DNA from: Trichocoleus sp.
GTDB lineage: Bacteria > Cyanobacteriota > Cyanobacteriia > Elainellales > Elainellaceae
Direction of reading: 5' to 3'
DNA: 38,315 nucleotides
NCBI GenBank assembly: GCA_036702865.1
Contig: DATNQD010000032.1
Location: forward strand, 1-38,315
Position 1 is the stretch's first letter, and every line of letters begins with the position of its first letter. A program made the position numbers and the translations under genes. The notes under the pieces are model-generated. The model was not told where the DNA came from and ran no database searches. It worked only from the letters and a program-made list of their open reading frames with translations. Shown one piece after another: positions 22,563 through 38,315 of this stretch.

Positions 22563-22600
22563 TTCAACAGGACTGAAAGGAGCAGCCAAGTTGTAAGCAG
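22563..22600 (+). repeat. crRNA-tail-like sequence related to the 38.07-kb guide
   Basis: TGAAAGGAGCAGC (22574-22586) is identical to bases 38075-38087, and both are followed by TTGTAA in the same register (22591-22596 here). Upstream is TTTCAACAGGAC, which recalls the TTTCAAC...TTGAAAG frame of type V-K repeats. The spacer-like part fits tRNA-Thr less well than the copy at 38.08 kb because its anticodon-stem bases would not pair. It may be a decayed guide, or a partly chance similarity. Confidence 0.3.
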
Positions 22601-37019: not shown

Positions 37020-37565
37020 TCCCGGCAGAATTCGATCGCAACCCGTCTTCTTCAGCAACGTCCGCCACGAATCTCACATACCTCTGGCACCCCTGCCGTC
37101 TCCCCCACAAAATGTCCTGAGAAGATCATCGTATCCACCTGTTTCTTCCTGCAAGGGCTACGGGCGATGCGCTTGATTCAGTCTGCCTTCTAGCTTCTCT
37201 GTCACCCTATGGGAGGTTTGGGGTGACTGCGGTTTTAGTGCCCAAGGGGTTACTATTTAGGCTAGTGAAGGCTATTTATAATAAAGCGAGAACCCGCTTG
37301 CATAGGCGAGTAAGCTTGCTTGTTCAGGAGAATTCACCAACAGTTTTCAAAGGATTTGCGCTTTTTCGAGGTTTGGGCTTGAATAAGACCAGGTTTTATT
37401 TTCGTATTTCCAGCGCGTATTTCGTGTTTGCAATATTTAGTAGGTTTGTCCTGTAATGACGGAAAGGCAGGGATTTGCATCGCTTGCCAGGTTGATATCG
37501 TGATTGGGTCAAGTGGTGCTGTGTCTTTCGATCGCCAACCTTATTTAGACAAAGGAGAGATTGGG
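37020..37565. other. non-coding region before the WD40 relic
   Basis: 546 bp with no convincing gene. An inverted repeat GTCACCC (37201-37207) and GGGTGAC (37221-37227) may act in termination of the sugar porter transcript. The 37250-37340 part can fold into several short stems. I looked here for a Cas12k tracrRNA anti-repeat (complement of the repeat's TTGGGGCAG...TTGAAAG) and found none by eye. Confidence 0.4.
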
Positions 37566-37911
37566 ATGGATCCTGTCAGTCTGATTGTTGCGGCGTTGGT
37601 GGCGGGTGCGGCTAGGGCAGCGGGGTTACACGGTGCGGATCTGGGATGCCAAAACGGAAGCGCTGATCGGCAAACCCTTGACAGGGTATGAAAAGACAGT
37701 CAGTTCAGTGGCGTTCAGTCCGGATGGACAACGTATCGTCAGCGGCGGTGCAGACAAAACAGTACGGCTGTGGGATATTTCTTGGGAAGCTTTGCTGTCA
37801 ATGGGCTGCAATCAATTGCGCTATCATCCCAGCCTTAATCAACCGACTACAGATGATGTTGCCCGTGAAGCGAAGCAAATTTGTGAACAACTGTACATTG
37901 GGGCAGGTTGA
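37566..37911 (+). pseudogene. fused relic: N-terminus of one gene joined out of frame to a WD40 C-terminus
   Basis: AAAGGAGA before ATG 37566 starts MDPVSLIVAALVAGAARAAG, an N-terminus I associate with cyanobacterial effector-type proteins of unknown function. After about 20 codons, near 37620, the reading shifts by +1 into a WD40 repeat: YTVRIWDAKTEALIG, then VSSVAFSPDGQRIVSGGADK and TVRLWDISWEALLSMGCN, and then LRYHPSLNQP, the usual C-terminal tail of long cyanobacterial NACHT/WD40 proteins. The stop at 37909-37911 lies inside the first CRISPR-like repeat (…EQLYIGAG). The original frame ends after some 22 further codons. A large deletion, probably within or between linked genes, best explains the junction. 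It may have been cargo of the transposon whose end follows. Confidence 0.75.
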
Positions 37912-38048
37912 AAGAAAGTGATGAGGTCGATCGGAACGAAGCAGCGCCGTTGCAATCAACTGTCCCACTTGGGGCAGCTTGAAAGAACCTGTGGAGGTAC
38001 CTACTCCTGGAGGCGCAATCAACTGTCCCACTTGGGGCAGGTTGAAGC
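37885..38048 (+). CRISPR. degenerate CRISPR mini-array, type V-K-like repeats
   Basis: Three copies of a repeat: R2 (37949-37985) and R3 (38012-38048) are each 37 nt and share CAATCAACTGTCCCACTT followed by GGGGCAG and TTGAA. R1 (37885-37914) is shortened but keeps CAACTGT and TTGGGGCAGGTTGAAAG. The core CTGTCCC-ACTT-GGGGCAG folds into a 7-bp stem with one G-U pair. R2 runs from GTTGCAA to TTGAAAG, the overall form known for Cas12k (type V-K) arrays, whose repeats read GTT..CAAC...GGGG..GGTTGAAAG. Gaps are 34 nt (R1-R2) and 26 nt (R2-R3); the second is short for a working spacer. R1 overlaps the 3' end of the WD40 relic. No cas gene or leader is seen. Confidence 0.72.
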
Positions 38049-38066: not shown

Positions 38067-38098
38067 ATGTGGGTTGAAAGGAGCAGCTGGTTTGTAAC
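38067..38098 (+). ncRNA. delocalised homing crRNA with a tRNA-Thr(UGU)-matching spacer
   Basis: A truncated repeat ending GTGGGTTGAAAG (38069-38080) is followed by GAGCAGCTGGTTTGTAAC (38081-38098). The spacer reads like a tRNA-Thr(UGU) gene segment: GAGC (D-stem 3' strand), A26, anticodon stem GCTGG, loop TTTGTAA with anticodon TGT, then the pairing C. In tRNA genes GAGC commonly follows GGTA, which would supply the GTN PAM of Cas12k. Type V-K CASTs are known to carry such an off-array guide with a short spacer against a tRNA gene, next to the right transposon end. The repeat half matches the array only in its last ~9 bases, as expected for delocalised repeats. Confidence 0.68.
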
Positions 38099-38106
38099 TC
38101 ATTGAA

Positions 38107-38176
38107 CGACATCAATTTGTCACAATGACAGCAAATTGTCATCAACGACAACAATTTGTCCCTGATGACATCTAAT
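38107..38176 (+). repeat. four TnsB-type ~20-bp repeats (Tn7-like transposon right end)
   Basis: Units begin at 38107, 38126, 38146 and 38166 (spacing 19, 20, 20 bp): CGACATCAATTTGTCAC, TGACAGCAAATTGTCATC, CGACAACAATTTGTCC and TGACATCTAAT. The shared form is YGACA-NN-AAWTTGTC in one orientation. As I remember it, the right end of the Scytonema CAST carries nearly the same unit (CGACATTAATCTGTCAC) as TnsB-binding sites, ending in TGTACA. The fourth unit is cut after TGACATCTAAT by another sequence starting GGCTCTTCC, so the true terminus is not in the window. Confidence 0.75.
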
Positions 38177-38315
38177 GGCTCTTCCCAACTTTTGGTGATC
38201 TTGGCAGTCGAAGAGCAGTTAGATTCACTTCTAAACCAGAGCCCAATTGCTTAACCTGCAAGCAAAAAACGGCGACTCAGTAAATCAATACCCGCTCGTC
38301 CATACATTTGACGCT
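38177..38315 (-). mobile_element. end of a probable ISL3-family insertion sequence
   Basis: GGCTCTTCCCAACTTTTGG at 38177 looks like the terminal inverted repeat of ISL3-family elements, which typically start GGCTCTT. The body continues past the window edge. It begins exactly where the fourth TnsB-type repeat stops, so it inserted into the transposon end. ISL3 elements usually duplicate 8 bp; CATCTAAT before the junction is the candidate copy, to be confirmed at the far end. Confidence 0.6.
38251..38315 (-). CDS. ISL3-type transposase, C-terminal fragment
   Basis: On the minus strand the window edge enters a frame reading RQMYGRAGIDLLSRRFLLAG and then TAA at 38251-38253. 'MYGRa..dLLr.Rvl' is a C-terminal motif I associate with ISL3-family transposases. 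Only 20 residues are visible. The stop lies ~75 bp inside the inverted repeat, a normal distance for this family. Confidence 0.55.
   Translation of the reverse strand, partial: RQMYGRAGIDLLSRRFLLAG

What the first reader, a model, noticed from the sequence alone, without database searches (positions are those of the whole stretch)
38067..38098. Delocalised guide whose spacer has the form of tRNA-Thr(UGU)
GAGCAGCTGGTTTGTAAC follows a truncated TTGAAAG repeat and fits the D-stem, anticodon stem and TGT anticodon loop of a threonine tRNA. That is a functional homing target. The following base departs from the tRNA stem, giving an ~18-nt match, close to the short spacers described for CAST homing guides.
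Basis: partly seen in the sequence, partly recalled or inferred. Interest (0 to 1): 0.82.

Follow-up and report, generated by a model that had tools for sequence, protein, structure and literature searches.

The report
Fossil homing guide of CRISPR transposon
The spot is the leftover address label of a CRISPR-guided transposon that very probably once inserted itself beside a threonine tRNA gene in a cyanobacterium; the principle is known, but here the label seems to have outlived its machinery and a second, unrelated transposon of the same kind now sits at that tRNA gene.

Summary
At 38069-38097 lies a truncated repeat (GTGGGTTGAAAG) plus a 17-nt anchor spacer, between a short CRISPR array and the left end of a type V-K CAST. 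The spacer matches this genome's tRNA-Thr(UGU) at 16 of 17 bases, behind a GTA PAM. It is not an ~18-nt match: it breaks at base 10 and ends at base 17. An ISL3-like IS ends the window inside the CAST's terminal repeat. Its 8-bp duplication pairs 8/8 with contig C4, where the CAST terminus lies beside a tRNA-Thr(UGU) 3' half, 62 nt from where the spacer would start. So the guide very probably homed this element to tRNA-Thr(UGU).

It no longer looks like a working system: no cas12k, transposase genes or close tracrRNA of its lineage were found, and its repeat pairs poorly with the tracrRNA of the only CAST with a full gene set, on C67, which sits at the intact tRNA-Thr(UGU) with its own 17/17 guide. 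The lone tRNA half resembles the scar of an integrase-type element, as seen at tRNA-Val on C31. Verdict: decayed member of a known kind; the fresh part is layered reuse of one tRNA site by two CAST lineages.

The parts
37898..37914 (+). 3' part of a first, incomplete CRISPR repeat, overlapping the end of a WD40-gene remnant
   Evidence: direct repeat D3; sequence
37949..37985 (+). CRISPR repeat, 37 nt (GTTGCAATCAACTGTCCCACTTGGGGCAGCTTGAAAG)
   Evidence: direct repeat D1, register read
38012..38048 (+). CRISPR repeat, 37 nt, last bases changed
   Evidence: direct repeat D1, 97% over 32 nt, register read
38069..38080 (+). truncated repeat R* (GTGGGTTGAAAG) of the anchor guide
   Evidence: same layout in five other anchor units
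38081..38097 (+). 17-nt anchor (homing) spacer, 16/17 to tRNA-Thr(UGU)
38105..38176 (-). left end of a V-K CAST with TnsB-site-like repeats; the terminal one is cut by the IS; the rest (TGTACATTGACTAATTAGATG) is on contig C4
   Evidence: direct repeat D2, 83% to G005, duplication pairing and 31/35 identity of the joined end to G005
38169..38176 (.). 8-bp target duplication CATCTAAT of the IS
   Evidence: 8 of 8 with contig C4
38177..38315 (.). end of an ISL3-like insertion sequence; the contig ends here
   Evidence: 100% copies at C1, C31, C34, C48; piece of its transposase weakly matches DDE_Tnp_ISL3, below the curated cut-off
37585..37911 (+). WD40-gene remnant abutting the array where cas12k and tracrRNA would be expected; deletion junction inferred

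Best explanation
It is the anchor (homing) guide of a type V-K CRISPR-associated transposon, left in a decayed copy. Inferred working: the R*-spacer RNA, with tracrRNA and Cas12k, bound the tRNA-Thr(UGU) gene behind its GTA PAM, and TnsB/TnsC/TniQ inserted the element about 62 bp downstream, guide-bearing left end towards the tRNA. Later, by inference from the flanks, cas12k, tracrRNA and transposase genes were lost, an integrase-type element split the tRNA site so that only a 3' half stays beside the CAST, and an ISL3-like IS landed in the terminal TnsB site. Shown: the anatomy, the 16/17 match, the PAM, the spacing across the IS, and that the searches found no such genes. Inferred: past use of the guide, loss by deletion, and the order of events.
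For: R* + 17-nt spacer + left end in the published layout (for the layout; here). 16/17 to tRNA-Thr(UGU) with GTA PAM. IS duplication 8/8 with C4, against 1, 6 and 4 of 8 for the three other contigs with the opposite IS end; the joined end is 31/35 identical to the G005 left end. C4 carries a tRNA-Thr(UGU) 3' half next to the terminus; spacing 62 nt, against 54-61 in five comparison units. Close left-end relatives in G005 and G025 lie at tRNA-Val(GAC) with 17/17 guides.
Against: The spacer is 16/17 while 5 of 5 comparison units with an intact target are 17/17. The C32-C4 join is inferred, not assembled; the control join with C20 also gives 30/35 to G005, because C20 carries a CAST terminus too, so only the duplication (8/8 against 6/8) decides. 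The 5' half of the target is missing at C4, so the 62 nt uses the offset in the intact tRNA on C67. A sequence far diverged from the queries used (cas12k, tnsB, tracrRNA) could have been missed, and the assembly is in 90 contigs.
Confidence: 0.9

Rival explanations
1. The guide is still used in trans: Cas12k and tracrRNA of the CAST on C67 load the window's R*-spacer RNA and direct insertions at tRNA-Thr(UGU).
For: C67 has Cas12k, TnsB, TnsC and TniQ and the target tRNA is intact; the single mismatch would be a G:T wobble in the RNA-DNA hybrid (inference).
Against: Predicted pairing of the window R* with the C67 anti-repeat is -3.4 kcal/mol, against -16.8 for the native C67 pair and -11.4 with the G025 anti-repeat (anti-repeat stretches picked by eye). 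The target is already occupied by a CAST with its own 17/17 guide.
Confidence: 0.05
2. The guide fits a different tRNA-Thr(UGU) variant with a G-C pair where this genome has A-U (bases 10 and 18 of the 18-mer pair with each other in the tRNA), so it is exact for another host.
For: Both departures from the tRNA in the 18-mer fall on the two partners of one anticodon-stem pair.
Against: GAGCAGCTGGTTTGTAA occurs in 1 of 388 genomes of the class, and only at the window. The spacer proper is 17 nt, and the comparison units diverge at base 18 or 19 anyway, so a fitting base 18 has a one-in-four chance. The tRNA half on C4 has the A-U type base.
Confidence: 0.04
3. It is a chance likeness or a piece of a tRNA gene, not a guide.
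For: There is no exact match to any tRNA of the genome.
Against: 0 of 10,858 sampled window 17-mers match the 30 tRNA loci this well. The match starts at the base after R*, ends at base 17 and is followed by CAST end repeats, as in five other units.
Confidence: 0.01

Closest known systems
Anchor spacer with truncated repeat R* of cyanobacterial type V-K CASTs (PMC9938897, section 6 read; delocalised crRNA in PMC11656645, passages; Saito et al. 2021 recalled, not held)
   Same: R* of about 12 nt, 17-nt spacer read towards the left end, protospacer in a tRNA gene, GTN PAM, spacing within the published 46-82 nt
   Different: no cas12k, tracrRNA or tns genes found with it, 16/17 instead of full match, left end cut by an IS, only a tRNA 3' half beside it
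V-K CAST of genome G025, contig C20, at tRNA-Val(GAC), and its gene-poor relative in G005
   Same: left-end sequence family, R* ending GGGTTGAAAG, repeat ending GGGGCAGGTTGAAAG
   Different: G025 has a full-length Cas12k and tracrRNA; both target tRNA-Val(GAC) with 17/17; no Cas12k match in the 20 kb of G005 taken
V-K CAST at tRNA-Thr(UGU) on C67 of the same genome, and that of G388 (L094, MAG of an uncultured cyanobacterium)
   Same: anchor guide to the same 17-nt protospacer of tRNA-Thr(UGU)
   Different: other R* type (GGACTGAAAG on C67, GGGCTGAAAG in G388), other left-end repeats; C67 Cas12k is 48% identical to that of G025

Membership tests
Type V-K CAST | R* (about 12 nt) plus 17-nt anchor spacer beside the left end | tested here: met
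   38069-38097
Type V-K CAST | anchor protospacer in a tRNA gene with GTN PAM | tested here: met
   16/17 to tRNA-Thr(UGU), PAM GTA; one mismatch, and the half of the tRNA that holds the protospacer is missing at C4
Type V-K CAST | left end 46-82 nt from the PAM | tested here: met
   62 nt from inferred spacer start, across the IS and with the offset of the intact tRNA
Type V-K CAST | left end with TGTACA terminus and TnsB-site repeats | tested here: met
   interrupted by an IS
Type V-K CAST | CRISPR array with 37-nt repeats | tested here: met
   two 37-nt copies, one with changed last bases, and one partial copy
Type V-K CAST | cas12k | tested here: not met
   no match in the window; genome matches are C67 and a fragment on C40 only
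Type V-K CAST | tnsB, tnsC, tniQ | tested here: not met
   none among 22 window proteins scanned with Pfam nor by tblastn; TnsB matches of the genome lie on C67, C40, C60 and weakly C23
Type V-K CAST | cognate tracrRNA | tested here: not met
   G025-type tracrRNA: 0 matches in this genome; positive in G025 and, at 87-88%, in G388; a more diverged one could be missed, since the C67 stretch itself was not hit
Type V-K CAST | right end | tested here: inconclusive
   scan for TnsB-like sites gave 4 hits outside the left end at 11 bits or more, against a mean of 2.15 (largest 8) in 20 shuffles
Type V-K CAST | RNA-guided transposition | not testable with these tools
   needs experiment. Because defining genes were not found, it is filed as a remnant derived from a V-K CAST, not as an intact member

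The most novel reading that the evidence does not exclude
Integrase-type elements re-open CAST homing sites. By recombining into the tRNA anticodon region they restore an intact tRNA, push the resident CAST away with only a 3' tRNA half, and so make the same tRNA available to a second, unrelated CAST whose own guide converged on the same 17 bases. In this genome tRNA-Thr(UGU) would have gone the whole way (C4/C32 old, C67 new), while tRNA-Val(GAC) on C31 shows the middle stage.
Probability: 0.4. Interest if true: 0.55.

Novelty: new member of a known kind. Interest (0 to 1): 0.36.

Why it matters
It shows how CRISPR-guided transposons may age: guide and tRNA-side end can remain where effector, tracrRNA and transposase genes are no longer found, and one tRNA site can serve two lineages whose repeat/tracrRNA pairs are predicted to fit each other badly. 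It warns that a tRNA-matching guide in a cyanobacterial genome need not belong to a working system, and it gives a natural case for asking how occupied homing sites become available again.

Tried and rejected
Considered and dropped or left open. (1) The window's last 139 bases as the CAST terminus: they are an IS end shared by five contigs (C32, C34, C48, C31, C1), and the flank on C48 shows no CAST repeats. (2) A compensatory G-C tRNA variant as the true target: 1 of 388 genomes has the sequence, only at the window; my early note had called the two mismatches compensatory. (3) C40's tns genes and cas12k fragment as the missing part of this element: they are a distant lineage (TnsB 33%, Cas12k fragment 38% to C67; fragment 35% to G025). 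Only pieces of C40 were read by eye for an array. (4) A right end inside the window: scan inconclusive. (5) Synteny of window genes with the surroundings of tRNA-Thr(UGU) in relatives: among 19 relative loci only a few matches to window proteins of the kinase/regulator kind, nothing syntenic. (6) A target for the second anchor-like unit at 22580: the best other place, C84 with 1 mismatch, is preceded by ATG, not GTN, and lies in what looks like coding DNA by eye. (7) C1 and C89 as the two sides of one IS: only 6 of 8 bases of the duplication agree; left open. (8) The spacers of the array were not searched against phages or plasmids. (9) My hand counts of the spacing in a note (63 and 58) were replaced by the computed 62 and 57.

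Full report
Observation. The sequence is as reported: 38069-38080 reads GTGGGTTGAAAG and 38081-38097 GAGCAGCTGGTTTGTAA, followed by C. Upstream are two copies of a 37-nt repeat and a partial one; downstream are three 17-nt repeats of the form AACGACATCAATTTGTC (register). The window has no tRNA gene. It is the whole of contig C32 of a 5.93-Mb genome in 90 contigs.

Target. The genome's tRNA-Thr(UGU) is at C67:107981-108053. Against it the spacer matches 16 of 17: nine bases, one mismatch (G for A), seven bases, then departure; the PAM position reads GTA. Within 2 mismatches of the 18-mer the genome holds, apart from the window, only this tRNA and the anchor spacer of the CAST beside it. Seven more places lie at 3 mismatches, one of them inside another tRNA-family match on C68; the reversed-pattern control gave 3 hits at up to 3 mismatches. 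Of 10,858 sampled 17-mers of the window none reached 16/17 to any 17-mer of 30 tRNA loci (30 of 71 matches); 5 reached 15. The version with A, GAGCAGCTGATTTGTAA, is present in 19 of 36 genomes of the family; the 19 loci outside this genome were all called tRNA-Thr(UGU). The window's version with G is in 1 of 388 genomes of the class, only here. So the G is private to this guide and is best read as drift.

Bridging the IS. The last 139 bases, 38177-38315, are an IS end with 100% copies at C1, C31, C34 and C48. A typed piece of its transposase weakly matches DDE_Tnp_ISL3 (E 0.001, below the curated cut-off). Four contigs carry the opposite IS end, and C3 a diverged one. The 8 bases before the IS on C32 (CATCTAAT) agree in 8 of 8 with C4, and in 1, 6 and 4 of 8 with C89, C20 and C13. 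The joined left end, TGTACATTGACTAATTAGATGTCATCAGGGACAAA, is 31/35 identical to the left end of a V-K CAST in G005 and 30/35 to that of G025. The control join with C20 gives 30/35 and 29/35, because C20 carries a CAST terminus too; so the duplication decides, not the likeness. On C4 the terminus is preceded by TTTTTTAATGC and a tRNA-Thr(UGU) 3' half. From that half the terminus is 46 nt away; with the 16-nt offset in the intact tRNA the spacer start would be 62 nt from the terminus. In the comparison units it is 57 (C67), 58 (guide on C1, tRNA and terminus on C89, not shown to be joined), 61 (G005), 61 (G025) and 54 (G388), all five with a 17/17 spacer and GTA or GTT PAM. Published V-K CASTs have R* of about 12 nt, usually a 17-nt anchor spacer, and 46-82 nt from PAM to left end with one exception of 147 (PMC9938897, section 6 read).

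What is missing. Pfam scans of 22 window proteins (of 32 ORFs of 100 aa or more listed) gave no CAST protein. tblastn with Cas12k, TnsB, TnsC and TniQ of C67 and C40 and Cas12k of G025 gave no match in the window at E 1e-4. The genome's Cas12k matches are C67 (full length) and a fragment on C40. TnsB matches lie on C67, C40, C60 (with a stop) and, weakly, C23. PADLOC names the C67 proteins Cas12k, TnsB, TnsC and TniQ of V-K; the right end of that CAST is not reached before the contig ends, so 'complete' means its gene set. The G025 tracrRNA stretch finds nothing in this genome or in G005, and does find G025 (100%) and G388 (87-88%); it also misses the C67 stretch, so it detects only close relatives. 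The array abuts a WD40-gene remnant where cas12k and tracrRNA would be expected, which suggests a deletion. G005, the nearest left-end relative, likewise has one repeat, an anchor unit and a left end, without a match to Cas12k, TnsB, TnsC or TniQ in the 20 kb taken.

Could another CAST use it? R* and the tracrRNA anti-repeat should pair. C67 with C67 gives -16.8 kcal/mol, G025 with G025 -14.7, the window R* with G025 -11.4, but the window R* with C67 only -3.4 (anti-repeat stretches were picked by eye). So the only CAST here with a full gene set is an unlikely user of this guide. By contrast the guide on C1, aimed at tRNA-Thr(GGU), pairs with the C67 anti-repeat at -12.1.

History. On C31 an intact tRNA-Val(GAC) is followed by an integrase gene (Phage_integrase, E 1.3e-17), and about 27 kb on, a 43-bp copy of the tRNA 3' part lies next to a CAST terminus and the IS. 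C67 and C4 share a 42-bp copy of the tRNA-Thr 3' part in the same way. C67 and C4 are not joined in the assembly, and I could not show an integrase beside them: the one candidate gene on C4 had no convincing Pfam match. The simplest history is that an old CAST homed to tRNA-Thr(UGU), an integrase element split it off, a second CAST lineage homed to the restored tRNA, and the old one decayed. The order is inferred.

Known or new. V-K homing by delocalised guides to tRNA genes is published (PMC9938897, section 6; PMC11406308, section 26; PMC11656645, passages). Degenerate Cas12k genes are mentioned (PMC9938897, passages), and att-site use is called dynamic (PMC11406308, section 26). In the listings I saw no title or abstract start on guides outliving their CAST or on two CAST lineages using one tRNA gene in a genome; that library lacks most subscription papers. 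I therefore call it a decayed member of a known kind, of moderate interest for the layered site.

Noticed in passing
window 22567-22596: A second anchor-like unit, ACAGGACTGAAAG + GAGCAGCCAAGTTGTAA. It shares GGACTGAAAGGAGCAGC exactly with the C67 unit, is 14/17 to tRNA-Thr(UGU) and pairs with the C67 anti-repeat at -8.8 kcal/mol; no left end seen downstream. By the looser pattern test two such hits are not rare (13 of 100 shuffles).
   Followed up: partly
C4, C20, C31; C89, C1: The ISL3-like IS sits exactly 21 nt inside a CAST terminus on C4, C20 and C31, 39 nt inside on C89, and next to CAST-type repeats on C1; only C48/C13 look unrelated to CASTs. In G025 one of the copies printed (L136) also follows a CAST-like repeat. 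It may favour TnsB-site sequence.
   Followed up: partly
C34:30174-30373 with C20 (L053, L054): Two CAST-type termini about 213 nt apart once the IS is left out, like a miniature element without genes; no 5-bp flanking duplication seen by eye.
   Followed up: partly
C31:139-27586 (L052, L095): Integrase-type element of about 27 kb in tRNA-Val(GAC), bounded by a 43-bp tRNA 3' copy that abuts a CAST terminus.
   Followed up: partly
C40:75-4155 (L070): A distant V-K set, TnsB, TnsC and TniQ, with Cas12k cut to 209 aa.
   Followed up: partly
L061 (C4), reverse strand, beside the tRNA-Thr half: The anticodon arm appears with its loop inverted, giving the inverted repeat CGACCGGCTGATTACAAATCAGCCGGTCG; integration core or assembly artefact unresolved.
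   Followed up: no
C17:23635-26616: A dense tRNA array: 24 of the genome's 71 tRNA-family matches in 3 kb.
   Followed up: no
window 37139-37222: A dispersed repeat of about 70-80 nt: 96% in G005, 87-88% on C58 and C51 of this genome, seven places in G017.
   Followed up: no
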